This document shows, in pieces, positions 3,367-24,769 of a stretch of 53,084 nt of DNA. Where the stretch lies: contig CAILLK010000136.1 in the NCBI GenBank assembly GCA_903835005.1, forward strand, positions 1-53,084, in the 5' to 3' direction. The position numbers and the translations under genes were made by a program. The DNA is from an uncultured Bacteroidota bacterium. Lineage in GTDB: Bacteria; Bacteroidota; Bacteroidia; Chitinophagales; Chitinophagaceae. The notes below the pieces were generated by a model that saw only the letters and a list, made by a program, of their open reading frames with translations, searched no databases and was not told where the DNA came from. The first letter of the stretch is position 1. Every line of letters begins with the position of its first letter.

Positions 3367-3388
3367 GAAAAAGTTATATTTTACCTGC
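3367..3388 (-). promoter_or_regulatory. Late-gene conserved element, copy a
   Basis: On the minus strand the sequence contains GGTAAAATATAACTTTTT directly after the stop codon of the fibre-like gene and 46 bp before the next start at 3321. It is identical over 22 bp to copy b at 4595-4616. The element contains TAACTTTT, close to the Bacteroidota -7 box TAnnTTTG, but no -33 box is seen. Confidence 0.6.
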
Positions 3389-4552
3389 TTAAAATGCTTG
3401 CCAATCGAAGGTTAACGTACCTGTGAATAATGGAAAATTAACGACAAAAGTTGTAGATGTAATTGTACTCACCCAATAACCGGTTAATGCAGCTCCGGTA
3501 GTAGCATCTACTGGAGTAATTAATATTCTTGATGGAGTCCAGCCAAGAGAATGAGTAACAGTTACCGATGTAACTGAACTAACTGTATGGCTAAATAAGC
3601 CTCCATCGTCTGTAGCTAATGTTCCATTATGAGGTGGAGAAACGCAATTGGCTACACCCCCAATGGAATTTGCGCTTAAATTAAAAGTATTGCTCGCACC
3701 TTGTGTAAGTGACATTTCACCTGTTCCACTTCCTAATGTACCAGCATATCCTATACCTGCATATATACTGCCAATCGATCCGCTTGCTCCAATGCCTATG
3801 GTTTGTCCATGTGAATCCATGAAACATCTAATGAAGCCATTATCTACGAAAATTGAATCTGGTCTTGCTTTGAATCCTGGATTACCGGTAGGATCAGTAA
3901 CAGTTATTCCTGATGGCGACCCCTGAAATGAATTACCTATACCATCTGTTGAATTTAGTCCATTTATTGTGACTCCAAATGCTGCTATCCCATTTGTAAT
4001 TTCCCAAATATACTGACTGAAATTAGATGCATTTGATCCACTTGTTATTAACAAAGGATACATGGTTGTATGAAGCATTAATGTAGATGCTAATCCAATG
4101 CTGTTGCCTTCATCAGGCCATAAATATCCCCTATTTCCTGTTAATGTTCCAGCACTTATAGTACTTGCATATGTCCCGGCCGAATTAAATTGCCGTAAAG
4201 AATTATAATTCAAATAAGACCTCTGACCACTATATCCAGTTGATCCAAATAAAGATATGGTAGATGCTCCTGTAATATTGATTCCTTGATCTGTACTATT
4301 GCCTGCCATTGTAACTGTCTCCAGATTCCCCGAAGAACTTGCAATTGCATTGCTTAGAATACCTAATGATGCCCAAATAGTATCCAAGGCTTTCCCTTCA
4401 GTTACATGAGTTATTGAATGGAAAGAGGTAGCAGTTGTAAATTGTGTATTAACTGCTGCTCTCATGGCTGCAATGGTAGTCGGTAGAATTGGTTGCGATG
4501 CAGCAATAAAGCAATTGAATGCCATTAACGAAGTAAATAATAATTTTTTCAT
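3389..4552 (-). CDS. Exported tail-fibre-like protein
   Basis: The start is placed at 4552 because the protein then opens with a signal peptide (MKKLLFTSLMAFNCFIAASQ). An upstream in-frame ATG at 4585 would add 11 residues unlike any signal. The product of about 387 aa is rich in Ser, Gly, Thr and Ile with repetitive beta-type sequence (GNSTDQGINITGAS), as in trimeric fibres. It ends in a domain with VTVTHSLGWTPSRILITP, similar in style to C-terminal domains of phage fibres. It follows the baseplate genes, as receptor-binding fibres usually do. The exact role is inferred. Confidence 0.65.
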   Translation of the reverse strand: MKKLLFTSLMAFNCFIAASQPILPTTIAAMRAAVNTQFTTATSFHSITHVTEGKALDTIWASLGILSNAIASSSGNLETVTMAGNSTDQGINITGASTISLFGSTGYSGQRSYLNYNSLRQFNSAGTYASTISAGTLTGNRGYLWPDEGNSIGLASTLMLHTTMYPLLITSGSNASNFSQYIWEITNGIAAFGVTINGLNSTDGIGNSFQGSPSGITVTDPTGNPGFKARPDSIFVDNGFIRCFMDSHGQTIGIGASGSIGSIYAGIGYAGTLGSGTGEMSLTQGASNTFNLSANSIGGVANCVSPPHNGTLATDDGGLFSHTVSSVTSVTVTHSLGWTPSRILITPVDATTGAALTGYWVSTITSTTFVVNFPLFTGTLTFDWQAF

Positions 4553-4594
4553 TTTTATGTTTTTGTCAAAAGTAGAGACAGCCAATAGCCATAT

Positions 4595-4616
4595 GAAAAA
4601 GTTATATTTTACCTGC
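4595..4616 (-). promoter_or_regulatory. Late-gene conserved element, copy b
   Basis: This is a second 22-bp exact copy of the element, overlapping the stop codon of the 318-aa tail gene by one base and lying 43 bp before the fibre-like start at 4552. A core of 18 bp (GGTAAAATATAACTTTTT) is shared with the other copies. Confidence 0.6.
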
Positions 4617-5572
4617 TAATCGTGAGTGTCGTCAAACGTATCATCATGAATTCTGAATACACCTGGATCAGATTTATTACTGAATATCCATTCTGAATTT
4701 GATGGGTTATCCCTTAGGGTTATTGTACCTGCCTTCATCGGGTAATCCTGAGCAACTTTAAAGCTCCAGTAGTTACCAGGTTCTTTTTTCCATTGAACCC
4801 CGTCTATCGTGAAATTATCGCAGGATATTATCCGGTTGACCTTATCCAGTACCCAGGGCGGCACACCTGCATTTCCACCTACAATAAACTTTGCAAAACG
4901 GTATGGAACAGATTGTAGCTTATTCACTACATACCGCTGGCCTTCAAATTCTACATCGTGAAATGTCGGATCAATATCAAGATAAGCCTCTACCCGGAAA
5001 GCCCATGGCTGGGGAGTGCTAATAGGCTCCCAGAAAACATCATAATCATTGGTATCGTTGGAGTACTCCAATAAAATGGTATTATTCCAGCCTTCATTCA
5101 TTACCTGAATACATTCAGCAACAAATATTGTATTTGTCAGCGGATCAGTATCACCGGCATAAATAGATTGGATGGCCACGTAATAAAAACCATCATCAAG
5201 CGGAATGTCTGAAGGTGAAAACTGATAGATGTAAGTATAGTACTGATCTCCGAAATCAGGATCAAGATTACCTGTTGCAGAATCGGTATAAACAAGACTG
5301 GTAACCAAAGTAGCTACAATATTGCTATCACCGTCAAGAATCAGAATATTAACAGATGTTGCCAGGCAGTCAAAATAGATCGTGATCATATCACTGCTAT
5401 TTACTTTCTGAAAATAATTTGCAGGCGCTTGAAAGTCAAGCCTGACTTGTTGATAGAAAAAACCCTGATCAAATGGCCATGTATTATATCCTTCTGGCAA
5501 AGAAGCATTCGCCGGTATGAATCTCAGGGTATTTAGAGGGGGAAAGCGTGCAGATTTATTGATCGTACTCAT
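4616..5572 (-). CDS. Putative baseplate / tail-tip protein
   Basis: The 318-aa protein has no signal peptide and reads as a beta-sandwich structural protein with many aromatic residues. It overlaps the upstream 851-aa tail gene by 4 bp, so the two are translationally coupled and probably assemble together. In siphoviruses the genes just after the tape measure encode distal tail, hub and tip proteins. I recognise no specific family, so the call rests on position and composition. Confidence 0.6.
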   Translation of the reverse strand: MSTINKSARFPPLNTLRFIPANASLPEGYNTWPFDQGFFYQQVRLDFQAPANYFQKVNSSDMITIYFDCLATSVNILILDGDSNIVATLVTSLVYTDSATGNLDPDFGDQYYTYIYQFSPSDIPLDDGFYYVAIQSIYAGDTDPLTNTIFVAECIQVMNEGWNNTILLEYSNDTNDYDVFWEPISTPQPWAFRVEAYLDIDPTFHDVEFEGQRYVVNKLQSVPYRFAKFIVGGNAGVPPWVLDKVNRIISCDNFTIDGVQWKKEPGNYWSFKVAQDYPMKAGTITLRDNPSNSEWIFSNKSDPGVFRIHDDTFDDTHD

Positions 5573-8124
5573 AAGTTAGCAGGTATTGTGGTATTGGGTG
5601 AACAAAGCAATTTGAAATCAAACGTATCATTAGTGCCAGGTGTAATGCCAACCTCTAATACAAACCCTTCAATATAGGATTCAAGGCCATCAATATCGGT
5701 AACAGTGCCACCGAATACACCATAAGGCTTTGTTGCCATGAGGTCGGCAAGATCAAGTGGTACCTGCATAGTAAACTCAAAAATGTGAGGCTTAAATAAT
5801 ATCTGAGCAGAAGTATAGGCTGGATCAGTTGGCAATATATTTTCCTGTTCATCTATTGATCCTGATCCGCAGTCTGCACTTAGATCACCCCAACTGCTTG
5901 TCTCGGAACTGCCTGGCCTGGGACTTGTCATAAAACTCAGTGTCTGATCAGGAACATCATAATAGACAGACTTAATCCATGGCAACAATCTTAAAAGATT
6001 TCTTTTTGGTGATAGTGGGATATTATAAGCAAGTTCAGCCACACCTACTAAAGAAGGTATACTATGTGCGGCTGAATAACCCCATTGCGGCAATCCTGAA
6101 ACATTTGTAGGCTTCAAAAGTTCTTTAGATGGTACCGGTTGAGATGGCGGAAAGAAAGGACCTGAAAAAAGAGGTGTACCATCACCATAAGGAGCGATTT
6201 CTCCGCTTGTCAATCCGGCATCATAACCATTACTTTGCAGAATAAAAACTTCATTATCATCTGTTGCATAGTTTGAGTTCGGTTGTGAATTTTGTAATCG
6301 TTCAGTCTCAATACCATAAGGATCAGCTCTGTAAGGGCTTTTCAAATCAAGGTCTGATACCTCATTTATAGTCCTTACTTGAGTGATAAATTCCAATTCA
6401 TGATTGTATTCAAAATAACCATTTGCATCAGAATAAGTATTGTTATTATACCCGACCTTTAAATTATTTGCCTTCCCGTCAACGTAAGGAGTAATTGTAA
6501 AGGTCTGCATTGGTATAAGTCCTAAATCAGCAATCAATACATCTGCCTGAAAGAAATGGGAAAGATGCTCCAATACTACTGTATCTGTACCGCCAATATT
6601 TTCAACTCCCAAGCCTGCACATAATCTGACAAAAGCATCTTTTACAAAATCGCTGATATTCATATTCAGATAAGCCGCTGATCCGCTGCCATTATATTGC
6701 ACACCCCTTAATGCATTTCCCGAGGTAAAATAAGTCTCAGTAGGATCAACATCATAGTTACCCGGACCTGTTGGACTTCGTGGTACGGATAGAAGATCAC
6801 TTTTGCCGAATAAAGGAAGATTGTCGTAACCTGCAGGGTTTGTGGGTGGACCAGGAACAGCTGACCAGCTTAATGGAAAAACTGTTCCATAGGGTATAGG
6901 GTTGGTGCACATCAGATTTTGTAACAACATCTGAAATACCTGCCATTGTGAATAAGATGCAACTACTTCAGGTGTTGGCCATACATTTACTGATAATGAC
7001 AAACCACTTGCATATTGCCCCTTTAGATAATAAGCGCCATCAGTATAGGCGAACAATGAAGTAATGAAGGAGATGCTTTCCATTGCATTTGTTCCTACTA
7101 CTTCTAATACCAAATAATCTCCGGCATTGAAAATACCTGGCCATCCGGATATTGTAGAGGTATCAATGTCTACTATACCTATTCCCGGTAAAGAGGAGCC
7201 CGCTGGAATAGCTGGTGAAGTCCATAATGTAGTAGTGCTGATTATCGCCAGTGATCCGCTGACCATTCCCCAACGTTGAGCGGCTATTGAAACTGTAGAC
7301 GTTCCACTCCCCGGGTTTGTAGTGATAGTATCAATATTGAAAAACCCTTTTAAATTTGCGACTTGTGTCGCAAAAGTGAAGTTGAAAATGAAAGATGGTG
7401 ATGGAGGAGCTGTTGTAAGATTTGGCTCTGATGAAGCGGCTGAGCCGCCACTGTAAGTATCCTGACCGTTGAAAAATGCATCATCACGATTGACATATAC
7501 CATTCCTATAGTCTTAGCAGGCGTTACAGATAATCCACTTATAACACTTACGGAACCGTCAGAATTTGCCCACAATTGATAATTGTATGTTTCGATAAAT
7601 GGCATTCCCTGCATATAAATATTGGTAGGGTTCAATGGAGGAGCCGGATTCGGCGTTCCCATCGGTTCACCTATCATAATGCTATAATTAGTACTATCAT
7701 AAGCCTGCAACAATGCCGTAATACCTCCCTGCATCAATCCAACATCTACATACCAATATGAGCTTTTATATTTATCTCCACTGAAGTCAAGATCGAAAAC
7801 ACCAAGCTGATAATATGTTTGATCACTGGTATTGAGTTTATTAATGATGAATGATCCTCTTGCTTCCGTTCCTCCCTGAGTATTATATAGCCAGCGTATT
7901 ATTCTTGCACCATCGTTAGCAAAACGCATTGAATCAGGCATCTGTTTCCTGAAAACTCCGAAATAAGTTTTATGCCTAATCCATCTGAGTTGTAATTTAT
8001 TCCAGTCTACAACAGATGAAAGAAGCGTGACAGGAGTTACACTTGTAGTTACTACACCTGCATTTACATATAGGTAATGTCCCGTAATATCTGTTATTTG
8101 AAACTGAAAAATATCCTTTGCCAT
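5569..8124 (-). CDS. Large tail-tip / baseplate hub protein
   Basis: This 851-aa protein follows the tape measure gene with a one-base overlap. It is beta-rich with long Ser/Thr/Gly/Asn stretches and no signal peptide or membrane span. Its N-terminus (MAKDIFQFQITDITGHYLYV) and size suit a distal-tail/hub fusion. In siphovirus gene order the proteins right after the tape measure form the tail tip. No enzyme motif (peptidase or glycosidase) was spotted by eye. Confidence 0.65.
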   Translation of the reverse strand: MAKDIFQFQITDITGHYLYVNAGVVTTSVTPVTLLSSVVDWNKLQLRWIRHKTYFGVFRKQMPDSMRFANDGARIIRWLYNTQGGTEARGSFIINKLNTSDQTYYQLGVFDLDFSGDKYKSSYWYVDVGLMQGGITALLQAYDSTNYSIMIGEPMGTPNPAPPLNPTNIYMQGMPFIETYNYQLWANSDGSVSVISGLSVTPAKTIGMVYVNRDDAFFNGQDTYSGGSAASSEPNLTTAPPSPSFIFNFTFATQVANLKGFFNIDTITTNPGSGTSTVSIAAQRWGMVSGSLAIISTTTLWTSPAIPAGSSLPGIGIVDIDTSTISGWPGIFNAGDYLVLEVVGTNAMESISFITSLFAYTDGAYYLKGQYASGLSLSVNVWPTPEVVASYSQWQVFQMLLQNLMCTNPIPYGTVFPLSWSAVPGPPTNPAGYDNLPLFGKSDLLSVPRSPTGPGNYDVDPTETYFTSGNALRGVQYNGSGSAAYLNMNISDFVKDAFVRLCAGLGVENIGGTDTVVLEHLSHFFQADVLIADLGLIPMQTFTITPYVDGKANNLKVGYNNNTYSDANGYFEYNHELEFITQVRTINEVSDLDLKSPYRADPYGIETERLQNSQPNSNYATDDNEVFILQSNGYDAGLTSGEIAPYGDGTPLFSGPFFPPSQPVPSKELLKPTNVSGLPQWGYSAAHSIPSLVGVAELAYNIPLSPKRNLLRLLPWIKSVYYDVPDQTLSFMTSPRPGSSETSSWGDLSADCGSGSIDEQENILPTDPAYTSAQILFKPHIFEFTMQVPLDLADLMATKPYGVFGGTVTDIDGLESYIEGFVLEVGITPGTNDTFDFKLLCSPNTTIPANL

Positions 8125-11100
8125 TATGCATTGTGTTTATTTATGTAAGTAGTTATGCTGTTACCCCTTTTTATTGATAGTTGCCATTCTCCTCCTTTCA
8201 TTATGTGATTGTGAATAGGAAGGTTTTTGATAGTATCTTTTAAATCTCCTATTTCTTCTTTCATAGTAATCTGCAGGGCGCTGAAATCATTCTGGTTAAC
8301 AATATTTAGGCTATTCAATAGTCCGGATGTCATAAAACCCATACTACCGGCAATCAGGTCAATTTCCGGTACCACACGGGGAATAACATGTGTACCAGCT
8401 GGGAAATCTTTAATAGTTGGCTCAGATATCACATATGGTGCTTTACCTGGCTCAATGATCGTTTCCGGCCTTACTTCAGCTACTAATGCTTTACCTCCTG
8501 GGTGACCTTCTGGAGGTGTACCAAATAGATATTGTGGCATTGGAGCTGCCAGTATAGCTGCAATTTGTGCAGCACCGGCACCGGCAATAAGAGCGGCCAT
8601 TTCAGGATATAAAGGAGCTGTTATAGGATCACCAAGCAATTTAAGGGCTGATACCTCTGCAATTGCAATCTGTTCAGTTACGCCCAATACAGCAGCCACA
8701 CGGTCGGCAATGGCCTGCTCACGCTTAATGCGTGTCATCTGGTCCTGTATCTGCTTTTCCTGCAATGCAGTCTGGGCGTTTAATGCCTGTGTAGCAACTG
8801 CTTTTTGCCGGTCATTCATCATGGATGTATTAATCGCATCCAATGATATCTGAGCTCTTGTTTGAATAGCTTTTAAAAGTTGTTCTTCATATCTAAGTTG
8901 ACTCTGATAATAATCATCAACCAAAGATTTTCCGATGGACATTGCCTGATTGGCAACATCCATTTCTTTACTCTTTAGGTCCTTTTGAGCATCCTCTAAC
9001 GTTTTGGTTCCGGCATGAGTCATGCCATTGCGCTGATCGATTTCTTGATTTAACCGGGCCTGAATAGCTGCGCGCTGATCAGCAGTGATCTGATCACTTT
9101 TAAGCAAATACTGATCTTCAGCAATTTTTTCATTGAGAACAATCAGTGCATACCTTTCTTTTAATTCTTTGAGCTTTTTCTCATATTTTTCGGCATTGAT
9201 AAGCTTATTTTCATAAGCAGTATCCAGCTGATCACGCTCTTTGCCATACATCGCTTCAAAGTCTGCCAGACGATCCTGCAATCCTTGATTTTCCTGCTTT
9301 ACATATTCTTCACCGGAACTTTTAATGATGGCAAGCCTTTTATTTTTACCAACCAGTGTCAGGGATGCTAGTTTATTCTGTAATTCTTCCTCTGCATTCG
9401 CAACTTTAAGATCATAGGCAAGCGATTCTTCGTAAAGTGCCTGATATTGCGTTTTAGTAAGTACGGAAATGCCATCATCGGAAGCCTTTTTCTTATCTGC
9501 GATCTCGCGCTGTTTTGCCTGTAAATCAGCTATTTCTCGACCGTTTTCAATGACAGCTAAAGCAATCTGATCCTTTGTAAATTGATCGTAAGCTTCCAAC
9601 CTTTTCGCAAGTGATGCTTTCTCATTCTCAAAAATGAGCGTTTGTGCATCTGCATCATTCCGATATCGCTGCTTTGCCTGTTCAGCTACTGCATCATTGA
9701 AATCCTTTTCACTCTGGAGCATAGCCGCTAAATCTTCGGAAGTGGTATCCTTTGCTTTCTTTTTAGGGCCTTTATCTAAATCTCCTTTGGGTTTGATTTC
9801 TACATCAGGATTGAAGAGTTTTTCTACATCATTATATTCATATCCAAGTTCTTCCAGTTTTTTAAGTGCTTCTTTTCTTTTTGTAATCTCATCCTCCATT
9901 TTTCTCCATTGATTTTGCGCATCCAATGCAATATCGGCACCCGGAAGGCCACCGGGAATTCTGCTATTAACAAAGTCTGGGTTTTCAAAATCAAGATCTT
10001 TATAACCTTTTTGGGCGTACCTTTTTTTATCTTTCTCAAATTCATCCTGAGCCATAGCAGCCCTTTCTTTTGCAGCATTGTATTTTGCCGCCTGTTCAGC
10101 AGCCGCTTGATTGGCAAGTAAAAGCCTTTGCTTAATAAGTTCCTTTGTTTTCTCCAGATTCAGCTGCAAGGCACCTGTTTCGGCATCAATTGACAAAACA
10201 GAGTTGCCGAATATATCACCAAGCTTTGCAGTGATTTCTCCGAGCCTCGTTTTATCATCTGCTGTTTGATTTACTTTCTTTGAAAGCTCTTCATACTCAT
10301 CAATCAGTTTTTGTCCGGCATTGGCCTCCTGTGATGCCTGTACAGCTGCTTTTTGGTTTGCTTCCTCCACACCTGATAACTTTACAAAGAAGTCAGCAAT
10401 AGAAAGTTCCATTTCTTTAATATCCCTTTTCACTGATTCTATCTTACCGCCAAATGAGTTTGCAAAGGCTGCTCCAGCCCCCTCAACACGCGGTTTCAAT
10501 TCCTTCATGATCATTGAAAGCCGCTCGGCTGGAGTTGCCGCAGCTCCAGCTTCGGTAGCTGCATCTTTAATGTTGATACCATACTCCTTTAAAGCCTTAG
10601 CGTTACCCTCCAGTGATTTGATGATAACCTTTGAACTTTCTTCTACAGAAATGCGCTCTTTCGCTGCAAAATCAATGATCACCGGTATCAGTTCCTTTAT
10701 TTGCTTTTCGGAAAGCTTGCCATAGGTAATAAGCTTGTCGAATACTCCCTGAACCTCATAATCATCAAGGTATTTAAATTCTTCTGTAATTTCCTTCACC
10801 TGATCATTAATCCTGGCCATGGCAGGCGCCGCATTATTGTTCTCAAGAGTATTGGTAAGCTTACGTGCGGCGCCATCAGCTTTTTCAAACTCTTCACTGA
10901 TTCCGGAAATGAATTCCATGCCGGCCTGAATACCGAAGAAGGCAATAGCAAACCTGCCAATCTCTTTTAATATTTCGCCTACTTTTTCATAAGCCATTTT
11001 TATTCGCTCACCGGACGCAGCAGCTTTTTCACCAACCTCAGTTACAGCAACATTAACTGAATTGATTGCTTCTTTCAGTTCAGATACTCGGATTGCAAGC

Positions 11101-13304: not shown

Positions 13305-13323
13305 TGTTGTAAGAATTTGAAAA

Positions 13324-13791: not shown

Positions 13792-13807
13792 ATACTTTGA
13801 CTTATCT

Positions 13808-13838: not shown

Positions 13839-13859
13839 AAATGTGAATAATAAATAATG

Positions 13860-14190: not shown

Positions 14191-14195
14191 TTTGA

Positions 14196-15188: not shown

Positions 15189-15249
15189 TTTATTTAAAAA
15201 TTTGAATGTGAAAAATGTTGTTTATTGTTTTCATTCAGAAAAGAAAAGG

Positions 15250-15693: not shown

Positions 15694-16256
15694 TTTTGAA
15701 ATGGTGGTTTTTGATTCGTTAATTTTAATTGTAAGTCCTTAATTTCAATAGCATCTAAAAAGTCATTGAATTGATTTGCGGTATTCCCATACAAACCGGT
15801 TTTGCCCCAATAATAACGGTCAAGCTTGATATGCTTAAGTCCCTTCTGATTTTGCGTTACGAAATAACCGCTAGCTACAATCTGCTTCATTAGCTCCTGG
15901 TATATCGGCAACAGAATAGGTAGAAAATTCTTTGTCAATCGATCTGCTGCTTTTAAATCAGGCTTGCTGCTATATGCAATAACCATTTGAAGAGTAACAT
16001 CTGCATAATAGCCACCGGGATTGCCCCAATGCTCCGGAATGTCAGTGAATAGCATCACCAAAGGATAGATATTCATCTTTGAAGTAGGGCTCTTCTGTTT
16101 TTCCTGCAATGTTGCGATAAGCTCCAAAGGATGACCGAATAGGTAATTGATAGCCACTATATCGCTGTTTGCCCCCTGCAACTGCGTAAGAATAGCAGCC
16201 TGAACAGCGGTAACGATATTGCCCATCATCTGTACTACCGGAATTGGATAAGTCAT
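15690..16256 (-). CDS. Head-tail joining / tail terminator-like protein
   Basis: This 188-aa protein lies between the connector and the tail tube gene and is coupled to both neighbours (one-base and 4-bp overlaps). Its size, mixed alpha/beta sequence and position match the tail terminator or minor head-tail joining protein of siphoviruses. I see no signature motif, so the label is positional. Confidence 0.55.
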   Translation of the reverse strand: MTYPIPVVQMMGNIVTAVQAAILTQLQGANSDIVAINYLFGHPLELIATLQEKQKSPTSKMNIYPLVMLFTDIPEHWGNPGGYYADVTLQMVIAYSSKPDLKAADRLTKNFLPILLPIYQELMKQIVASGYFVTQNQKGLKHIKLDRYYWGKTGLYGNTANQFNDFLDAIEIKDLQLKLTNQKPPFQK

Positions 16257-16816
16257 CAGAAAAAAGTTATTTTTTCAAATTTGAAAGCTTGTCTTTTACT
16301 GGAAGGATTATCTACTTCCCACTCTGGAAATAGAATATTACCATCCCCGTCAACTGCATACTTCAGAAAATCCCTCAGCAATTCAGTCTGATCAACCATT
16401 TCATTATAGGCACGCATTTGCTTAATCATAGCATCTGCATTCTGGCTGTTCTCTGAATTGCTTTTTACTTCACCAATCGTTGAGGTGAATGTTACATTGT
16501 CGCGGGTGTACCAATAGTAGATGTAGTTGGCTATCGGCGATAATAATTCCGTGTTTGTTAAGCCTGTCCACAAATTGACCCATCCTTTGTCATTAGTAAA
16601 TTCGGCCCCTTCCTGCAAAATCAAAAAACGACCCTTTGCAGGTCCTGGGTTATAACTGGCATTAAACAACTTCCATAGGGGGTAACCCAGGGCCTGCTGT
16701 AGGTACCGCTGTTCATATTTTTGTATGAAAACGGTCAATGCATCAACATTGTCGCTGTTTTGCAAACCCGGAAGGTTAATCTCCCCTATGAAATATGTTT
16801 TATCAATCAATGACAT
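16256..16816 (-). CDS. Head-tail connector (gp6-like) protein
   Basis: The 186-aa helical protein follows the major capsid gene, the usual place of the connector that binds below the portal ring. The N-terminal segment (FIQKYEQRYLQQALGYPLWKLF) and WVNLWTGLTNTELLSPIANYIYYWYTRDN resemble the DUF6712-type adaptor seen in Bacteroidota phages. It ends with a one-base overlap with the next gene. A partial match to the late-gene element lies over its last codons (16259-16275). Confidence 0.6.
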   Translation of the reverse strand: MSLIDKTYFIGEINLPGLQNSDNVDALTVFIQKYEQRYLQQALGYPLWKLFNASYNPGPAKGRFLILQEGAEFTNDKGWVNLWTGLTNTELLSPIANYIYYWYTRDNVTFTSTIGEVKSNSENSQNADAMIKQMRAYNEMVDQTELLRDFLKYAVDGDGNILFPEWEVDNPSSKRQAFKFEKITFF

Positions 16817-16826
16817 CTTTAAATGA

Positions 16827-18263
16827 TTATGCGGTCGCCAGAGTAGCCAAAGCAGCTGTAATATTGCTGCATTTCATAAATGCATTGGCATCCACGTTAC
16901 GGATCAGCAGGTTAAGCCTCATATAACCCTTCATGGTTGCAACCTCATGCTCAAAGTCATTATTATTGTTGTAAGCCATTTCCAGGCCAAAACCTTTGCG
17001 CATGTAAATTGTTCCTTTGCTGCTGTCAAACACATAGCAGGTATTAGCCGGCACATTAGGATTGCTCCTTACCTTCATTCCCTTGATCTTGATCTCTGTG
17101 CCGTCTGCATTTCTTACAACGAATGGAGGCAATAGGTATTGGTTCAGATTATCTTTAACCAGCAACTGCTTAAACTCATCAACAGTATTCAGCAGGATTG
17201 TATCAGGCATGTAAGATTTATCCTGTCCAAGTGCCACTATCTGCGATGCCATGCATACAGCCAGATCATAGAAGTTCGGAGACTGCACGGTCCCGGCGAA
17301 AGCTGTAATAGTGCCTCCTAAAGTATTGGCGGCGCTAAACTCAGATGATTTTTCGTTAACTGAATGCAGGTTAGGATATACACCATTATCCAGCAAAAGT
17401 CCATTATCAGCCTTCAGGATTACAGAACTGTTGATCAGGCGCTGCAACTCACCCAATACGAAATCATAGTCGGAAAGCATGTCAATATTCAGGTAGATGA
17501 AATCACGCACCTTCGTGATCTGAATATTGTATTCCTGCCATGTAACGTTTGTAGTGGAATTGGAAGTGGCTATACCTGCAACATTCTGGGCATTGCGGGT
17601 AATAGTGGTCTGATCCATGAACTTGATAAATTCCAAGCTGCCAAGTGGTACTGTAGTGAAGATATCAAGCATGAAGGGAGCTCGTACAGGCAATTGACCG
17701 ATACCAGGTACCCGGTAACCGAGTGTAGAGCCTGTCATGTTGCCATCATCCATTGTTTCGGCTGATTTCAATTCCATGTCAATACTCTTCTCCTGTTTCT
17801 TAAGGAACTTCTGGAATAAGCCTTTTTCATCTTTCAATGCGGCCATCACAGGGTTTTCACCTTTGCCATTCAGACCGGAATCTTCTAGCTTCTTCAATTT
17901 TATGGCAATGGCTTTGTAGCCATCAACCATATCTTTGAATTCGGCCATTTGCTCTTTAGTAAGGCCTTTTTCTTCCAGAGACAGAGCTGCATAGCCTTTC
18001 AGCTTTTCATCTAATGTTTCCAAATCAACAAGCCCCTTCATGGCTTCATCCTGAGCCTCTGCAAATGCTTTGGTTTCCGGTGTTGCTGTTTCCCATATGC
18101 CTTTTTTCTTCATGGAGGCTACCATACCGACCAATGCTATAGTCGGAGATGCTTTTCTGGCAATAGCGGTATGTTTAGCCGCAAGGCCAAGGATACCCAG
18201 TATACTCAATCCGAGAATTAAGTTTTTGGTACCCTTACGAATTTTGAATGTGAGCTTTTTCAT
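16827..18263 (-). CDS. Major capsid protein, HK97 fold
   Basis: The 478-aa protein has an N-terminal scaffold-like delta region of about 180 residues (coiled coil MKGLVDLETLDEKLKGYAAL through KKLEDSGLNGKG), then an HK97-type shell domain with the N-arm, E-loop and P-domain order expected. The prohead protease gene directly upstream would remove the delta region during maturation. Unusually, the first 50 residues contain a basic start and hydrophobic stretches (LILGLSILGILGLAAKH and TIALVGMVASM). The start is supported by the two-base spacing to the protease gene. Confidence 0.88.
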   Translation of the reverse strand: MKKLTFKIRKGTKNLILGLSILGILGLAAKHTAIARKASPTIALVGMVASMKKKGIWETATPETKAFAEAQDEAMKGLVDLETLDEKLKGYAALSLEEKGLTKEQMAEFKDMVDGYKAIAIKLKKLEDSGLNGKGENPVMAALKDEKGLFQKFLKKQEKSIDMELKSAETMDDGNMTGSTLGYRVPGIGQLPVRAPFMLDIFTTVPLGSLEFIKFMDQTTITRNAQNVAGIATSNSTTNVTWQEYNIQITKVRDFIYLNIDMLSDYDFVLGELQRLINSSVILKADNGLLLDNGVYPNLHSVNEKSSEFSAANTLGGTITAFAGTVQSPNFYDLAVCMASQIVALGQDKSYMPDTILLNTVDEFKQLLVKDNLNQYLLPPFVVRNADGTEIKIKGMKVRSNPNVPANTCYVFDSSKGTIYMRKGFGLEMAYNNNNDFEHEVATMKGYMRLNLLIRNVDANAFMKCSNITAALATLATA

Positions 18264-18264
18264 T

Positions 18265-19125
18265 TTAGTTCACGTTTTGTTTTAAAGCGTTAAATAATGT
18301 TTTGAAATCAACGGTATTAGTAATCACTATAGCATCCTTTTCAGTCCGGCCCTCTTTTATGAGAGTGTCCTTTATTGATGGCTCAATTGTGAATATTTCA
18401 TTTATAAGTTGCTTTAACTGCAACATTTCCATTTCAAAGGATTGCAGCATTTCATCAGATTGAGTGCCTGATTTTAACTGTCTTCCCAGGTTGGAAATTC
18501 TTTCGTTTATCTTTAATGATAGAGAGTCCTTATTCAGTGATTTTACACCCAAGTATGGAGTAAGTGAATTACAGCCAAAGGCAACTGTTGAGCCTTCATA
18601 TAGCTTTATTTCATCCCACAAAAACATGTAATTGGCATCTTTGGTATCTTCCGGATTTATGAGTGTTTTCACATACTTATCCCAATCTGTTGATTCCTTT
18701 TCAATACATTTTCCAGATAGATACTGAAATCCAATTGAATGGTTATCGTAAATCTCCTCCTGATAGTTAATAAGAGTATCGATGCCAGCCTGTGTAGAAC
18801 TCATTTTGGTTTCAAAATAGATGCCAGATACGCCTCCTATTTTCTTTTCTTCAAGTACCTGAAGCTTACCAGGCAATTGAGTCCAGTCATGATGCAAAAG
18901 GTGTTTAATTTTCTGAGTGGCGTTACTTGACGGCCCCCTTTCGGAAATAGATTTAGCTGAACAACCATCCAGCAGCACATCGTTTGCTGAATCGAAAAAG
19001 TTGAACGTGTTGTAAAAACCTGTTACAATCTTTTTTGTAAGATCAACATCCTGCACCTTTGCGCCCATGCTCTTGATCGCGTAGGCTATCTGCTGTTTTT
19101 GCTGCAATAAGTTGTTTTCTTTCAT
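18265..19125 (-). CDS. HK97-family prohead protease
   Basis: This 286-aa serine protease (family S78) processes the capsid precursor. The expected catalytic residues are visible: His in LLHHDW (residues 78-79), Ser130 in NHSIGFQ, and an acidic residue in LYEGSTVAFG (Glu177). The fold region covers about residues 30-195. The C-terminal 90 residues are charged and helical and may act as a scaffold or capsid-targeting tail. The gene lies directly before the capsid gene, the standard order. Confidence 0.9.
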   Translation of the reverse strand: MKENNLLQQKQQIAYAIKSMGAKVQDVDLTKKIVTGFYNTFNFFDSANDVLLDGCSAKSISERGPSSNATQKIKHLLHHDWTQLPGKLQVLEEKKIGGVSGIYFETKMSSTQAGIDTLINYQEEIYDNHSIGFQYLSGKCIEKESTDWDKYVKTLINPEDTKDANYMFLWDEIKLYEGSTVAFGCNSLTPYLGVKSLNKDSLSLKINERISNLGRQLKSGTQSDEMLQSFEMEMLQLKQLINEIFTIEPSIKDTLIKEGRTEKDAIVITNTVDFKTLFNALKQNVN

Positions 19126-19209
19126 CTTGTTTTGGTTTTACTTGCTTTACCTTTTTGTTATCCAGTTCTACCGGAAAGTTTTTATTATTGGTTATTTTCA
19201 GCATACTCT

Positions 19210-20694
19210 TTAATTTGTCGGGCTATCGCTTGGGCTTTCATTACTACCTTCACCCGGATTGGTACCACCTCCCGGCGATTTAGCCTGAGCAATGGAAAGT
19301 ATCTTTTCAACCTGGGCCAGCTCTTCCTGACTCATTTCATAGAGTAGTTTATCATAGAATCCATTTACAACAGCGTCAAGTCCACACGTTTTACGCCAGT
19401 CATTCAGGGTTATAATACCGTTGGTGAACCGGACCCGAGATGTTTCATTATTACGCCAGTCAACAGATGCTTTTTCCTTCAAATTCTCCTGCAATACATG
19501 CACATGGGCAAAACTTACATCCAGATATAATCCTACCTCATCAAGTCCAAGCCAGCTCGTAAGTGAATTGCAAAGGCTTTTCGCACGTGGTATTACCACA
19601 TTATCATACACGGTTTTGTCTGCATGATTCTGATTTTCAAAGGTTGAACCTTTTGCGCCTGGCATAAGATCACGGGGAATACCATAAATCGCAAAAATTG
19701 CAGCTGTATCAGCAGCCGTTTCTTCAAACGGTTGCATGTCTTGAATGGAAGCTCCTACCTTGATATAGTCAACAGGAACAGTGAGCATACCTACAGGGCT
19801 TTTCATTCTATCTTTACCATGGCCGGTCAAACCATAGGATTTATTGTATTCCTTCATCGCCTCTTCCTTTTCTGATTTGGTAAGCGCCTGCATCCCCGAT
19901 GCATCACTTTTTCTGCTTACAAGAAATCCGAGAGCTCCTCGCTTGGTATAAATCACGTTACGAGCCTCATAAACGGCGCAAAGGTTGGATACTGCCTTTT
20001 GAGCGGAAAGAAGAGGTGAACGGCCCCGTATATTCATATCGTAGGCATACAAGCTTTGATACTTCGTATACATCACCTTATCAGGGGTAATACTTACCAG
20101 TCCATTCATACCTTCAGGTACAATAAAGGCTTTGATCAGTTCCTGTATAGTTGTAGCAGAAAGGTATTTTATAAATGGATCTGTCTGGATATAGACAATA
20201 TCTGCCTGAAGGTTTACCAGCGTTGCAACGGTCCGGTAATTCAAATTGAAGACATCAGATACATTGCCATAGAGAAATGATTTGCCACAAACCATTTCAT
20301 AGGCACAAAGCTGATAAACTAATTCTGACCAGTTTTGTAATGGATTAGGGGTTGATAAAAGCTTATTCATGTATTTGTTATCATCAACTACCTCATCCGT
20401 TCCTTTCTTTTTTACCTGATAAACACCACCTGCCAGGCGTGAAGCAACAATGTGAACAGGAATATATATTTCAGGCAGTTCATGGTAGAGTACTGCAAGA
20501 TTGGAATCGGTGTATTGGCCCCAAACAGCTGCGAGGTCCGGCATCTGCGTATTATACAGATTCAGTCCAGGCTGCATGTCTATGTTATCCTGATTGATAA
20601 AGGCTTTTGTTGACAGATTGGCCCCGGATTTGTTCCGTGAAAGCCAATTATCAATTTTAGTTAAAACACCCATTTGGGCATAAAAATCCTTCAC
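19210..20694 (-). CDS. Portal protein (HK97 type)
   Basis: The 494-aa product forms the ring at one capsid vertex through which DNA enters and leaves. It has the typical HK97-portal traits: NPLQNWSELVYQLCAYEMVCGKSFLYG in the clip/wing region, a stem-like region with SPLLSAQKAVSNLCAVYEARN, and IFAIYGIPRDLMPG followed by helical ASVDWRNNETSRVRFTNGIITLNDWR. The C-terminus is Gly/Pro/Ser rich. It sits between large terminase and prohead protease. A copy of the late element is 15 bp upstream of its start. Confidence 0.9.
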   Translation of the reverse strand: MKDFYAQMGVLTKIDNWLSRNKSGANLSTKAFINQDNIDMQPGLNLYNTQMPDLAAVWGQYTDSNLAVLYHELPEIYIPVHIVASRLAGGVYQVKKKGTDEVVDDNKYMNKLLSTPNPLQNWSELVYQLCAYEMVCGKSFLYGNVSDVFNLNYRTVATLVNLQADIVYIQTDPFIKYLSATTIQELIKAFIVPEGMNGLVSITPDKVMYTKYQSLYAYDMNIRGRSPLLSAQKAVSNLCAVYEARNVIYTKRGALGFLVSRKSDASGMQALTKSEKEEAMKEYNKSYGLTGHGKDRMKSPVGMLTVPVDYIKVGASIQDMQPFEETAADTAAIFAIYGIPRDLMPGAKGSTFENQNHADKTVYDNVVIPRAKSLCNSLTSWLGLDEVGLYLDVSFAHVHVLQENLKEKASVDWRNNETSRVRFTNGIITLNDWRKTCGLDAVVNGFYDKLLYEMSQEELAQVEKILSIAQAKSPGGGTNPGEGSNESPSDSPTN

Positions 20695-20708
20695 ATTTAT
20701 AGGATAGT

Positions 20709-20726
20709 AAAAAAGTTATATTTTAC
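20709..20726 (-). promoter_or_regulatory. Late-gene conserved element, copy c
   Basis: On the minus strand GTAAAATATAACTTTTTT starts immediately after the large terminase stop codon and ends 15 bp before the portal start codon. If TAACTTTT acts as a -7 box, the portal message would have a leader of only about 10 nt. Confidence 0.6.
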
Positions 20727-22241
20727 TTACCACAAATGAGCGAATTGCTCTTTGAAATATTTGCCCATTCCGGCCATGCTATCGGGTGCATCATCATGCT
20801 TGTTTTTGCTTGCACCGCTCTGTATACTCATATAAGCTGTCAGATTTTCAAAAAACCTTTTATATTCTCTGGAGCATGTATTCCAGTCTTTACGGAAAAC
20901 AAAGTGATTCTTGATGAAAGCTGATTGTGCTAAGATGCGGACGTGTTTATTAGTTGTATTTTTCAGTATCCTGATATCACAATCATTCATGCTGTTCTCA
21001 ATTTTTGACCTGACGGCTTTTGCAAACAGTATCCATGCTGAATTACCCTCACATTGCGCTGCGTTAAGCTTATGACTTTTGATAAACTCCACACATGCCG
21101 GTTCATTGATATCTGTTCCTTTGCTATTATAGATCACGTCCGGAATGTAAATTTTATCTCCCACAAGATATCCAGCAGGGAATGAGAGATCATCACCACC
21201 TTCATCTGCAGGATCGATATACCCAAACCGGAAATCTGCCAGCTTCTCTACATCAACTGTCAGTGGATCATAATAATGAAGATCAGCTTCAGGGAATAAT
21301 AATCCCTCCCTTGACTTGGGATTTTGCTGCAATTGACGCTGGAAAAATATTCTTACCTCTTCATCTTCGCTTTTTTCCATCCGCTGCAAATCTTCAACCG
21401 AATAGATCGAAGGGTCTAACGATTGCAATGCACCGGCTTCATCAACATAAAGTGTTGGCAGTTCTATTACCTCCCATTCACCTGGCTCAATCTCCTGAAG
21501 GTAACCAATCAGGTCTTTGGGGTGTAACCTCTGCATCAATACCACTATCGGAGTTTTACGGCTGTTACGCCTATTTTGAACGGTAGATGTATATTTCCGG
21601 TTAACCCTTTCACGCACTATATCACTTTCTGCATCATCTGGTTTGATGCTATCATCGTAAATGATGGCGCCCCCGAAACCTTCTTTATTTTCAATTTCAG
21701 TCAGCCATTTATCTATTTCATCATCTTCCTGATCAACATCCGCTGGATCATTGTAATCAGATGCTCCAGCGCCGAACCCGGTAACCTGACCTGATGCCGA
21801 TGTAGCGTACACACCTCCGCCGGTCGTGGTGTACCATTTCTTTTTACTGTCAGTTGATTGTTTAATCTTCACGTGAGGGAACAGAGATTTATATTCCGGA
21901 GACTGCACGATATCCTTTGTACCCTCACTGTTATCAAGTGCAAGAGAGTCAGAAGCGGTAAGATGAATGAATTTTGCACCTGAATTGATTGCCAGGCCGT
22001 GAGCTATGAAATTCTTAACGGCTAATTCTGTTTTACCCAACCTGGGCCCAACAGATATTGCCAGCTTCGTAACCTCACCTTTTAACACCCGCTCCAGAGC
22101 ATTAGCAATCTTGAGGTGATGGTAAAGAACTTTGTATTTGCGGTGATATCGCTGTTTAAAAAAGTAACGTGTAAAGAAAAGCAGGGAATCGAGAGATTTA
22201 TATTTTGCTGCTTTCAATATCTTAGCTTCCTCCCTTGTCAT
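20727..22241 (-). CDS. terL: Terminase large subunit
   Basis: This 504-aa DNA-packaging motor has an N-terminal ATPase with Walker A GPRLGKTE (65-72) and a Walker B-like GAIIYDDSIKPDD (191-203). The C-terminal RNase H-like nuclease has a first acidic motif YIDPADEGGDD (341-351) and a late acidic motif KHDDAPDS (481-488). An acidic insert (NDPADVDQEDDEIDKW, about 164-179) sits before Walker B. It follows the small terminase and precedes the portal. The late element lies 32 bp upstream of the start. Confidence 0.95.
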   Translation of the reverse strand: MTREEAKILKAAKYKSLDSLLFFTRYFFKQRYHRKYKVLYHHLKIANALERVLKGEVTKLAISVGPRLGKTELAVKNFIAHGLAINSGAKFIHLTASDSLALDNSEGTKDIVQSPEYKSLFPHVKIKQSTDSKKKWYTTTGGGVYATSASGQVTGFGAGASDYNDPADVDQEDDEIDKWLTEIENKEGFGGAIIYDDSIKPDDAESDIVRERVNRKYTSTVQNRRNSRKTPIVVLMQRLHPKDLIGYLQEIEPGEWEVIELPTLYVDEAGALQSLDPSIYSVEDLQRMEKSEDEEVRIFFQRQLQQNPKSREGLLFPEADLHYYDPLTVDVEKLADFRFGYIDPADEGGDDLSFPAGYLVGDKIYIPDVIYNSKGTDINEPACVEFIKSHKLNAAQCEGNSAWILFAKAVRSKIENSMNDCDIRILKNTTNKHVRILAQSAFIKNHFVFRKDWNTCSREYKRFFENLTAYMSIQSGASKNKHDDAPDSMAGMGKYFKEQFAHLW

Positions 22242-22272
22242 GCCAACAAAGGTATTTTCAGAGCAATGGCAT

Positions 22273-22293
22273 GAAAAAAAGTTATATTTTACC
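22273..22293 (-). promoter_or_regulatory. Late-gene conserved element, copy d
   Basis: On the minus strand GGTAAAATATAACTTTTT overlaps the last base of the small terminase stop codon and lies 32 bp upstream of the large terminase start codon. Confidence 0.6.
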
Positions 22294-22724
22294 TAATACT
22301 CCTCTTCCAATGCTTTGCTATACTTCCTGATCTCATCCTGCGAAAGGTCAACACTAATGATAGTTGGTGTGACTTTATCCGGATCGAAATACACACCCTC
22401 CAGTTTGCTTATTTCTTTCTGAATAGAAAGGATCGTCCTGATACCCATCGGTGTGACTTTATACTCCTGCTTCATCGCACGGATCATGCCTCGCAGCTCC
22501 TGCACCCGCATTTTACGTTTTTCAAGGATGTTATCATCTTCAAACTTTATCCAACGTTCCCGGGCCTTTTGTAGGAGTATAAAAGCATGCCGTTCAGATT
22601 TTGCCCAATCCTTCAATAGAATCTGTTGTACAATCATAGCAGACGGGATACTTTCGATCATCCATCCTTGTATTGTAATTAGTCTCTTTTCAAATTCTAC
22701 TTTGTCAGGTCGTGCTTTAGGCAT
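22293..22724 (-). CDS. Probable terminase small subunit
   Basis: The product of about 143 aa is helical and strongly charged, with QKARERWIKFEDDNILEKRKMRVQELRGMIRAMKQE as a probable oligomerisation coiled coil. Its N-terminal half has a likely helix-turn-helix (IPSAMIVQQILLKDWAKSERHAF) for recognising packaging DNA. The start at 22724 is chosen because its ATG overlaps the upstream stop by 8 bp, suggesting coupled translation. An ATG at 22751 is also in frame. Position before the large subunit supports the call. Confidence 0.7.
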   Translation of the reverse strand: MPKARPDKVEFEKRLITIQGWMIESIPSAMIVQQILLKDWAKSERHAFILLQKARERWIKFEDDNILEKRKMRVQELRGMIRAMKQEYKVTPMGIRTILSIQKEISKLEGVYFDPDKVTPTIISVDLSQDEIRKYSKALEEEY

Positions 22725-22956
22725 TTGGATACATGGCTTTGGCAATATCAATTAAATCAGTCAGCTCCTCAATAACTGCATTTAATCTTACTGCTTGGAG
22801 TTCCCTCATTTTCTTTACTTCGTCCGGGATTGAATCAAGACCATTAGGCTGGATGGCAGAAAGAGCAGCAGTTTTATTTTTTAACCTTTTTTCAAGAAGG
22901 TCAATAATTGGTTTTACAGTCTGGTTCATAAAACTTATTTTTTCTTCTGAGGTCAT
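22717..22956 (-). CDS. Small helical hypothetical protein
   Basis: This 79-aa protein is almost all helix (KPIIDLLEKRLKNKTAAL, then DEVKKMRELQAVRLNAVIEELTDLIDIAKAM) and could form a coiled coil. It lies between the methyltransferase and small terminase genes and overlaps the latter by 8 bp. Function unknown; a packaging accessory role is a guess from position. Confidence 0.6.
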   Translation of the reverse strand: MTSEEKISFMNQTVKPIIDLLEKRLKNKTAALSAIQPNGLDSIPDEVKKMRELQAVRLNAVIEELTDLIDIAKAMYPNA

Positions 22957-22982
22957 AACCGGCTCTTTTTGAACCGGTAAAA

Positions 22983-24455
22983 TTAAATAGTTGGCTCCAA
23001 AATATCTTCAAGTTGCAAAGAGCCGTTAATGTGTTGAAAATCAATAGGTACATTATTCTTTTTGCACCAACGCACATACCTGTTAATAATGTGTTGTATG
23101 TACTTTGGTTCAATTTCAGTGGCCCGGCAAGCTCGGTTAGTTTTTTCACATGCGATCAGACAGGTACCACTACCCAGGAACCAATCAGCAACTATATCAC
23201 CGTCACGTGTTGTGTCGAGTATAGCATCTGCGATCATCTGCACTGGCTTAGGTGTTGGATGATCCTTTAACTCTTTGCGGTCTGGATTTGCAGTACTCAC
23301 GGCTGAAGGGTAGTTCCACACATTGGAGCGGATGCGATCCTTTAGCTCCAGGTTACTTAGATGTTTTACATCACCGTTTTTGAAAATGAAGCAAAGCTCA
23401 TCATTGGTTTTATAGAAACCACCCTCATCGAGCATGTCGTTATTCCAGATGGCTTTTGCAGCTTCATTGCTGAAGATAAAACAGAGCTCCTGCTTCGCCC
23501 GGTAGAAGGAACCATTCGCCATGATATCTTTGTTCCACACGCATAACTGCTTTGGCTGGCAATTACCGTACACCTTCTTAGCAGCATCCATCATGTGCCA
23601 CACGTGCCGCCAATCCATAAAGATGTAATGAATAGCTCCAGGGACCGTAACATCAACTGACAGCTGCATGATCAATGCCAGAAATGCAGAGAACTCATCA
23701 TCAGTCATTTCACCGGCTCCCATTGCAAAATCAGCATGATTGTGAGTGTGTCGGTTATCCTTCAAAAAGAAATTGGTAGGTAGATTGTACGGGGGATCGC
23801 AGATCACAATCCGTGCCACATCACCGACCATGAGCTGCTGAACGATAACAGGATCCTGAAAGCTGCCACAAATAATCCGGTGCCTGCCTAACTGGAACAA
23901 ATCACCAGCCTGCACCTTCACTTCAATTTGTGCGATGCCAAAATCAGGATCTTCATCTGTACCGGAAGTCACATCAAACAAATCAAATTTTTGTTCAAAC
24001 CTTTCTACACTGAAAGCAGGAATGGAAACCTCTTCTTTGAGATCAGTCCAATCAAGATCATTCAATGTGATAAAGTCATGTAACCCCTGCTGAGTTACTT
24101 TGGCATATGCCGAACTGAAAACCAATACCAGCTTCGATGCCTCCTTTTTATCTTTGCAGGAAATGAAAGTACCAGGCAACAACTCCGGAACGTCTACGCC
24201 ATCTTTGATCAAATCCTCCAGAAGCAAAGTGCGATGTTTACCGTCAAGACAATATCGGTCACCGTTGGAATCTTCCCACACGTAAAAGGCCTGAATGAAC
24301 TGATTTCCTACCAGCGAATTTTTAAGCTTTTGGCGATCCAAATCAGCCAATTCTTTGAAATCATCCTGCTGCAAAAATTTTAATTCACGCCACACCACGT
24401 TTTTTGTGGTAATTATCCTTGATGTAAGCGAACTGATATTATTTGATTCCGACAT
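22983..24455 (-). CDS. ParB/Srx-like domain fused to beta-class DNA methyltransferase
   Basis: This 490-aa protein would methylate adenine N6 or cytosine N4. Residues about 20-120 form a ParB-like domain (GNQFIQAFYVWEDSNGDRYC, LDGKHRTLLL). The methylase has catalytic motif IV DPPY at 220-223 and, later, the SAM-binding motif I DWFLGSGTC (424-432), an order that defines the beta class. Residues 306-335 and 336-365 are a tandem duplication of the strand after motif IV (WN-D...G-FY...ELCFIF). It opens the late block and has a late element 50 bp upstream. No restriction enzyme lies nearby, so protection of phage DNA is the likely role. Confidence 0.9.
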   Translation of the reverse strand: MSESNNISSLTSRIITTKNVVWRELKFLQQDDFKELADLDRQKLKNSLVGNQFIQAFYVWEDSNGDRYCLDGKHRTLLLEDLIKDGVDVPELLPGTFISCKDKKEASKLVLVFSSAYAKVTQQGLHDFITLNDLDWTDLKEEVSIPAFSVERFEQKFDLFDVTSGTDEDPDFGIAQIEVKVQAGDLFQLGRHRIICGSFQDPVIVQQLMVGDVARIVICDPPYNLPTNFFLKDNRHTHNHADFAMGAGEMTDDEFSAFLALIMQLSVDVTVPGAIHYIFMDWRHVWHMMDAAKKVYGNCQPKQLCVWNKDIMANGSFYRAKQELCFIFSNEAAKAIWNNDMLDEGGFYKTNDELCFIFKNGDVKHLSNLELKDRIRSNVWNYPSAVSTANPDRKELKDHPTPKPVQMIADAILDTTRDGDIVADWFLGSGTCLIACEKTNRACRATEIEPKYIQHIINRYVRWCKKNNVPIDFQHINGSLQLEDILEPTI

Positions 24456-24768
24456 ATTGCACTGAATTAAAGTGAATCAAAATTAACAGGACACAGTAAG
24501 GAAGGGAATAAGTTATATTTTACCAGTACTGAAAGAGTGATATTTCAGGGTATCAGGAACCCCAGACCCCTTTTAACTGATAGCTTATTGTAATGCAACT
24601 TAAGACCTTGTAACAGGTAGCATAGAAATAGCCGGAATAGCGGTATTTAATGGAAATAGATGAACTCTTACGTTGATTATTACGTTCTACCTTCCTGCTG
24701 GTGATCGCTCTCGCGGTATCACAAAGCTATAATGATATAAAAAACATTAAGTTTGATTATATTTTACT
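24456..24768. other. Non-coding boundary between early and late operons
   Basis: No plausible gene is seen in these 313 bases. They hold late element copies e and f, an imperfect inverted repeat GTGATCGC/GCGGTATCAC (24701-24722), a spaced direct repeat TTACGTT (24668-24674 and 24680-24686), and on the minus strand a perfect -7 box TAGCTTTG (complement of 24722-24729) without a clear -33 box. A promoter, a regulatory leader, a small RNA or a packaging site could lie here. The terminase genes are close by. Confidence 0.5.
24505..24526 (-). promoter_or_regulatory. Late-gene conserved element, copy e
   Basis: On the minus strand GGTAAAATATAACTTATT lies 50 bp before the methyltransferase start at 24455, at the head of the late block. 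It differs from the consensus by one base. Confidence 0.55.
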
Positions 24769-24769
24769 T
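24755..24769 (-). promoter_or_regulatory. Late-gene conserved element, copy f (partial)
   Basis: On the minus strand AAGTAAAATATAATC follows the stop codon of the 114-aa gene. It keeps the GTAAAATATAA core but not the T run. Just downstream on the same strand is the -7 box TAGCTTTG. Confidence 0.4.

What the first reader, a model, noticed from the sequence alone, without database searches (positions are those of the whole stretch)
3367..24769. Recurrent GGTAAAATATAACTTTTT element upstream of late phage genes
Seen: five near-perfect copies (3367, 4595, 20709, 22273, 24505) and a partial one (24755), all on the transcribed strand, all in gaps of the late block. Four of the five full copies begin at or within three bases of a stop codon and the fifth (24505) lies in the early/late boundary. 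They lie 15-50 bp before the genes for methyltransferase, large terminase, portal, fibre-like and exported proteins. No copy was noticed in the early genes or in host DNA. The core TAACTTTT is near a Bacteroidota -7 box, but no -33 box is present. Inference: a phage-specific late promoter or activator/anti-terminator site, which would be a new regulatory signal for this phage group.
Basis: partly seen in the sequence, partly recalled or inferred. Interest (0 to 1): 0.72.

Follow-up and report, generated by a model that had tools for sequence, protein, structure and literature searches.

The report
Phage late promoter with activator box
The repeated 18-base element is the upstream half of a two-part switch that probably turns on the late (virion-building) genes of a Bacteroidota phage, and it may be read by a small phage protein that looks like the DNA-binding end of the replication initiator DnaA.

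Summary
Five copies stand on the minus strand, and the "partial" copy at 24751-24768 is a genuine sixth. So TAACTTTT is not the -7 box. RGTAAARTATAAC abuts the -33 position in a fixed-spacing, two-part late promoter. The architecture recurs in phage B (found by terminase; motif recovered blind) and phage C (found by scanning for the motif): 15 sites in three phages, all 39 nt from element to box. Among 394 sampled genomes of the family the strict pattern occurs more than once in two. The same two are the only ones carrying a 97-aa protein with the fold of DnaA domain IV. In phage C that gene has the motif in its own promoter, and so does a paralogue's operon elsewhere in the host genome. Best reading: an activator-dependent sigma-A late promoter, read by a DnaA-IV-type activator (window 41639-41932). 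The promoter is near certain; the activator's identity is probable. No experiment supports either.

The parts
3368..3385 (-). late element (activator box), upstream of gene 2698-3321, ATG 17 nt after the box
   Evidence: exact 18-mer
3339..3346 (-). -7 box TACTTTTG
4596..4613 (-). late element, upstream of the gene ending at 3389 (ATG at 4552)
4567..4574 (-). -7 box TACTTTTG
20710..20727 (-). late element, upstream of portal gene
   Evidence: portal PHROG
20681..20688 (-). degenerate -7 box GATTTTTA; portal ATG begins 7 nt after it, as in phages B and C, which also have G as first base of the box
22276..22293 (-). late element, upstream of large terminase
   Evidence: terminase PHROG
22247..22254 (-). 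-7 box TACCTTTG; terL ATG 5 nt later
24507..24524 (-). late element, upstream of DNA methyltransferase, first late gene
24478..24485 (-). -7 box TAATTTTG; ATG 22 nt later (22 also in phage B)
   Evidence: phage B has a weak counterpart 285 nt upstream of its methyltransferase site
24722..24729 (-). -7 box TAGCTTTG
41639..41932 (-). 97-aa protein with DnaA domain IV fold: candidate late activator, encoded in the early operon
   Evidence: (Bac_DnaA_C)
42482..42514 (-). ordinary early promoter for contrast: TTTG (-33), 21 nt, TATCTTTG (-7)

Best explanation
The element is the upstream half of a two-part, sigma-A-type late promoter. RGTAAARTATAAC lies at about -51 to -39, directly upstream of a -33 position that holds no TTTG, and TANNTTTG lies at -12 to -5. 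The distance between the two is fixed at 39 nt from first base to first base. A phage-made activator binds the upstream box and recruits the host RNA polymerase to a core promoter it would otherwise use poorly. The best candidate activator is the 97-aa protein at 41639-41932, a stand-alone DnaA domain IV made from the early operon. When the repressor is lost the early operon is read, the protein accumulates, and the late promoters fire together. Shown here: the motif, the spacing, conservation in three phages, co-occurrence with the protein, the predicted fold, and a motif in the promoter of the protein's gene in phage C and of a paralogue's operon in C66. Inferred: binding, activation, temporal order and start sites.
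Against: No expression or binding data. Phage C was found by scanning for the motif with its box, so two of its four sites (L065 and L075 hits) were found by construction; its other sites, their gene positions and its 97-aa gene were not. For B and C the 15-site list used the box as one criterion; counting by motif score alone (matrix built from those 15 sites), 15 of 17 sites scoring >=15 in the three phages have the 39-nt box, and 0 of 2 in C66. In phage C the 97-aa gene is not in the early operon but lies past the late block beside the integrase. In C and C66 the motif in the regulator's promoter sits at 22 nt, not 39, and C66's perfect copy is 71 nt from its box; neither the window nor phage B has a strong motif before its own copy of the gene. 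A second DnaA_C protein (26823-27308) exists in the window and in C but not B. A small Cro-like HTH beside the repressor, with a sub-threshold sigma region 4 match, is also shared by all three phages. One strong motif in phage B (179790) has no box.
Confidence: 0.67

Rival explanations
1. Same two-part late promoter, but the activator is another phage protein: the Cro-like HTH at 42224-42457, the second DnaA_C protein at 26823-27308, or the 114-aa protein 24769-25113 at the early/late boundary (the lambda Q position).
For: The Cro-like HTH is shared by all three phages and has a weak sigma region 4 match, 19.3 bits against a cut-off of 24.1. 24769-25113 sits where late regulators often sit (recalled).
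Against: No counterpart of 24769-25113 was found in phage B or C. 26823-27308 has no counterpart in B. The Cro-like gene was not found in C66, where the motif and a DnaA-IV paralogue occur together; its place beside the repressor suits a Cro.
Confidence: 0.25
2. A phage-made or alternative sigma factor reads the whole promoter, with the 18-mer as a new -35 element.
For: Fixed spacing to the -7 box fits a sigma factor as well as an activator.
Against: The downstream box is the ordinary sigma-A box, as in the early promoter at 42482-42514. No sigma factor passed its Pfam cut-off among the window proteins scanned (10 each, 3 more; not every ORF). A 13-base conserved block is long for a sigma contact (inference).
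Confidence: 0.06
3. The element is an operator where a repressor silences late genes in the prophage.
For: Position near the core promoter; at 22 nt in C and C66 it overlaps the core promoter and may well repress there.
Against: In all 15 late sites it lies upstream of the core promoter at one spacing and stands where a -33 box would be (1 of 15 has TTTG 17-23 nt before the box), which fits activation. No motif scoring >=15 is at the window's early promoter.
Confidence: 0.05
4. Repeat of no transcriptional role (chance, packaging or recombination site).
For: Copies are short and AT-rich.
Against: 0.11 matches expected; same geometry and gene positions in phages whose terminases are only 37-59% identical.
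Confidence: 0.01

Closest known systems
sigma-A(Bfr) promoters of Bacteroidota (TTTG near -33, TAnnTTTG at -7; PMC7366714 passages and section 8, PMC9723704 passages)
   Same: the -7 box is identical in consensus
   Different: no TTTG at -33 in 14 of 15 sites; a 13-base phage-specific box stands just upstream instead
Activator-dependent phage late/middle promoters (Mu C, P2 Ogr, T4 MotA; recalled, no call)
   Same: phage-specific box at fixed distance from the host polymerase's core box, shared by several late operons
   Different: no sequence relation was looked for; host phylum and core box differ; candidate activator is of another fold (recalled)
GafY of Caulobacter and the N-terminal domain of GafA of Rhodobacter (passages of PMC9632790, PMC11150451 and PMC9638019, and section 9 of PMC11150451)
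   Same: DnaA domain IV-like DNA-binding protein that helps switch on phage-type structural genes; GafA is autoregulated
   Different: GafY's site at the main cluster lies near -120 and works with IHF and GafZ; here the box abuts -33 and recurs at 4-6 promoters per phage; no GafZ-like partner was sought
DnaA domain IV / DnaA box (1j1v, 3pvp)
   Same: same predicted fold over the full length
   Different: the DHTTV recognition stretch is replaced (KQNV in window and phage B); the motif is not TTATCCACA (box sequence recalled)

Membership tests
sigma-A promoter of Bacteroidota | TANNTTTG -7 box | tested here: met
   10 of 15 exact, 14 of 15 within 1 mismatch
sigma-A promoter of Bacteroidota | TTTG -33 box about 17-23 nt upstream of the -7 box | tested here: not met
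   1 of 15 late sites (phage B portal); the window's early promoter has it at 21 nt
phage activator-dependent late promoter | recurrent phage-specific box at fixed distance from the core box, before late operons | tested here: met
phage activator-dependent late promoter | phage-coded protein that binds the box and is needed for late transcription | not testable with these tools
   only genetic association and sites at the gene's own or a paralogue's promoter
DnaA domain IV-type activator (GafY/GafA-like) | stand-alone or N-terminal DnaA-IV fold | tested here: met
DnaA domain IV-type activator (GafY/GafA-like) | sequence homology to GafY or GafA itself | not tested
   no GafY/GafA sequence was fetched
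DnaA/DnaA box | DHTTV recognition stretch and TTATCCACA site | tested here: not met
   for the protein; column counts for the site
Q/N-type anti-termination | site downstream of, or inside, a promoter-proximal transcribed region followed by terminators | tested here: inconclusive
   elements lie upstream of the -7 box; terminator-like sites in 20000-25500: 2 found against 4.0 in shuffles

The most novel reading that the evidence does not exclude
A stand-alone DnaA domain IV has been turned from reading replication origins into the master late activator of a group of Bacteroidota phages. It reads a new, non-DnaA box (GTTATAYTTTACY on the other strand, which keeps the TTAT start of a DnaA box but not its CACA end), regulates its own gene in some members, and is the Bacteroidota counterpart of GafY/GafA in alphaproteobacterial gene transfer agents. 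DnaA-IV activators of virion genes would then be a wider, overlooked class. Many late messages would also be leaderless or nearly so: the ATG follows the box by 4-7 nt at 6 of 15 sites.
Probability: 0.5. Interest if true: 0.72.

Novelty: new variant of a known kind. Interest (0 to 1): 0.62.

Why it matters
Late transcription control is textbook knowledge for coliphages. My literature searches (open-licence PMC papers, judged from the listings) returned no described late promoter or late activator for a phage of Bacteroidota; most subscription papers are not in that library. This gives an exact promoter, an exact spacing and one named candidate protein, so the question can be tested with a reporter and a single gene. 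It would also yield a phage-controlled promoter for Bacteroidota genetics, and would link DnaA-like activators in gene transfer agents to phages of another phylum.

Tried and rejected
Rejected: the 45726 match (inside an ORF, no box). TAACTTTT as the -7 box (the TANNTTTG box 21 nt on is the conserved one). The 114-aa boundary protein as activator (not shared). Host site C163:88228 before a candidate defence operon PDC-M31A/B: it has the 39-nt geometry, but its motif score of 10.6 lies in the background range, and none of the 8 other M31A homologues I examined (of 12 other places; the 4 others, partial or lower-ranked, were not examined) has the architecture. For this I used for plus-strand loci and for minus-strand loci, because the automatic orientation test failed for most loci. 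Probably chance.

Led nowhere: the first own-genome scan had a wrong spacer of mine (N29 instead of N27) and found 0; corrected. The viral scan gave 98 stretches (80 listed), nearly all single hits and taken as chance; two lay on one contig (phage C). Two jumbo-phage contigs (L047, L106) share two motif-like sites and were not pursued. A tighter scan gave 3 stretches, each a single hit in its whole record. More distant relatives do not show such sites: 9 TerL loci, 20 of the 36 portal loci (one of the 20, L182, is phage C itself and does have them), the prophage regions in G655, G559 and G429 (whole genomes: 0, 1 loose hit elsewhere, 0), Bacteroides phage BF503P4 (50,000 of 53,679 bases; no similar box pairs) and Polaribacter phage Danklef_1 (2 weak, unrelated pairs). 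The 97-aa alignment found only phage C in viral contigs. In 395 class genomes it found, besides this genome, 17 genomes with one match each in open frames of 468-576 aa, which I take for host DnaA. In 50,697 phage records the window's 97-aa protein had 2 weak matches; both turned out to lie in full-length DnaA-like proteins, without the late architecture (one motif scoring 15.2 there has no box within 80 nt).

Selection to note: see evidence against. Leader lengths were read by eye. The rough matrix and cut-offs are mine.

Full report
WHAT IS THERE. The 18-mer GGTAAAATATAACTTTTT occurs on the minus strand at 3368-3385, 4596-4613, 20710-20727 (first base A), 22276-22293 and 24507-24524 (one mismatch). 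With 3 mismatches allowed 6 matches were found and 0.11 expected; the sixth, at 45726, is inside an ORF. Five of these six copies overlap, touch or lie within three bases of a stop codon.

THE SECOND HALF. I scanned both strands for the core GTAAAATATAA and asked where the Bacteroidota -7 box TANNTTTG falls. After the six exact cores it falls 21 nt after the 18-mer, 39 nt from its first base (TACTTTTG, TACTTTTG, GATTTTTA, TACCTTTG, TAATTTTG, TAGCTTTG). Only 13 exact boxes exist on the whole minus strand, and five of them are these. Of 40 near-cores with 1-2 mismatches, none has an exact box there. Sequences upstream of all exact boxes, compared without using the motif, give 9 similar pairs in the window; 19 of 20 block shuffles gave 0 and one gave 1.

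PLACE IN THE PROMOTER. A published map puts the sigma-A box at -12 to -5 (PMC9723704, passage). The motif then spans about -51 to -39, and its T-run occupies the place where the window's own early promoter has TTTG (TTTG-21 nt-TATCTTTG at 42482-42514). Only 1 of 15 late sites has TTTG 17-23 nt before its box. A strong upstream box with no proper -33 box is the usual mark of an activator-dependent promoter (established knowledge; inference here).

RELATED PHAGES. Phage B is a prophage in JAUIBA010000005.1, found by its terminase (59% identical). It appears to be the same record as G171, a genome of the window's own genus (identical coordinates; inference). Its blind box comparison returned GGTAAAGTATAACA at -39. 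Phage C is the 35-kb contig IMGVR_UViG_3300001838_000149 (terminase 39%); it was found by scanning viral contigs for the motif and box, so two of its sites are there by construction. Together: window 6, B 5, C 4 = 15 sites, all at 39 nt; boxes 10 exact, 4 with one mismatch, 1 with two. In these 15, B has G at motif position 7 in all 5 sites, the other two phages A in all 10; C's own-gene site, outside the 15, has G. A likely further B site (140404) has a two-mismatch box. The portal site has G as first base of the box in all three phages, and the portal ATG follows the box by exactly 7 nt in all three; the methyltransferase ATG follows by 22 nt in the window and in B. At 6 of 15 sites the ATG is 4-7 nt after the box, which predicts 5' leaders of 0-3 nt. 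Leaders under 10 nt were about 3.7% in B. thetaiotaomicron and leaderless mRNAs 5.5% in F. psychrophilum (passages).

PHAGE SPECIFICITY. The looser pattern (core-N27-box) has 5 hits in the window and 1 elsewhere in the host genome; 7 of the other 293 sampled family genomes have one each, and the reversed-pattern control gives 9 hits. The stricter pattern occurs in 3 of 394 sampled family genomes: this one (5 in the window, 1 at C163), phage B's host (3) and one more (1); the reversed control gives 4 hits in 3 genomes.

OWN-PROMOTER SITES. With a matrix of the motif (13 columns, built from the 15 sites), scores of 15 or more are: window 6 (all late), B 6 (5 late; one at the 3' end of the repressor gene without a box), C 5 (4 late), C66 2. 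The odd one in C, GGTAAAGTATAA at 9854, stands 47 nt before the ATG of the 97-aa gene with TAACTTTG at 22 nt. In contig C66 of the host genome the best site (44447, full score) lies 98 nt before a small operon that encodes a 317-aa protein with an N-terminal relative of the 97-aa protein; its nearest exact box is 71 nt away, and a weaker copy there is exactly 22 nt from that same TAATTTTG. C66 is also one of only two places outside the window with GTAAAATATAACTTT within 1 mismatch in the whole genome. At 22 nt the motif overlaps the core promoter, so autorepression is my guess; the 39-nt sites would activate.

PRECEDENT. GafY of Caulobacter is homologous to DnaA domain IV and activates a gene-transfer-agent cluster (PMC9632790, passage; PMC11150451, passages and section 9). 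The DnaA-like N-terminus of GafA is thought essential for activating RcGTA promoters, and gafA is autoregulated (PMC9638019, passages). I did not compare sequences with GafY or GafA. Mu C, P2 Ogr and T4 MotA are named from memory.

WEAK POINTS. No wet data. In C the 97-aa gene is not in the early operon. The Cro-like HTH is a live rival. The window and B have no strong motif before the 97-aa gene. Three phages are few, and one was found through the motif. The resemblance of the motif's other strand (GTTATAYTTTAC) to the TTAT start of a DnaA box is only suggestive in AT-rich DNA.

VERDICT. Two-part late promoter: about 0.95. DnaA-IV protein as its activator: about 0.65. A new variant of a known kind, well suited to a quick test.

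Noticed in passing
G000:C163:88228-88273 (L006, L225): Motif-like sequence with the 39-nt geometry before a two-gene candidate anti-phage defence operon (PDC-M31A/B); weak motif score and absent from the 8 other M31A homologues examined, so probably chance.
   Followed up: yes
G000:C66:30000-49900 (L159): Second prophage-like region: duplicated tail gene, tape measure, gp3-type small terminase, 317-aa DnaA-IV fusion protein and integrase, with a 72-bp stretch 98.6% identical to window 28667-28738.
   Followed up: partly
20681-20688 and matching places in phages B and C: The portal promoter's -7 box begins with G instead of T in all three phages, with the portal ATG exactly 7 nt after the box: perhaps a conserved weak promoter with a nearly leaderless message.
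   Followed up: partly
24525-24721: About 200 nt without an assigned gene between two tandem late promoters; phage B has a similar pair 285 nt apart. Possible leader or small RNA; no Rfam match.
   Followed up: no
L146, phage B position 179790 (-): Full-strength motif AGTAAAGTATAAC at the 3' end of the repressor gene, antisense, without a -7 box.
   Followed up: partly
26823-27308: Second DnaA_C helix-turn-helix protein one gene cluster before the late boundary; a relative sits near the same boundary in phage C, none was found in phage B; Danklef_1 has a gene annotated as DnaA HTH.
   Followed up: partly
L047 and L106 (two jumbo-phage contigs): Two motif-like sites with a TANNTTTG box at 39 nt, the same pair in both contigs; not pursued.
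   Followed up: no
2065-2099 (-): Rfam match to the DUF805b RNA (37.6 bits) near the end of the late block.
   Followed up: no
61-277 (+): Group II intron Rfam match (61-137) next to a tRNA-Lys (201-277) and the integrase; the tRNA may be the attachment site.
   Followed up: no
44219-44846 (-): PIN-domain protein (44219-44635) with a small upstream gene, possible toxin-antitoxin pair in the lysogeny region.
   Followed up: no
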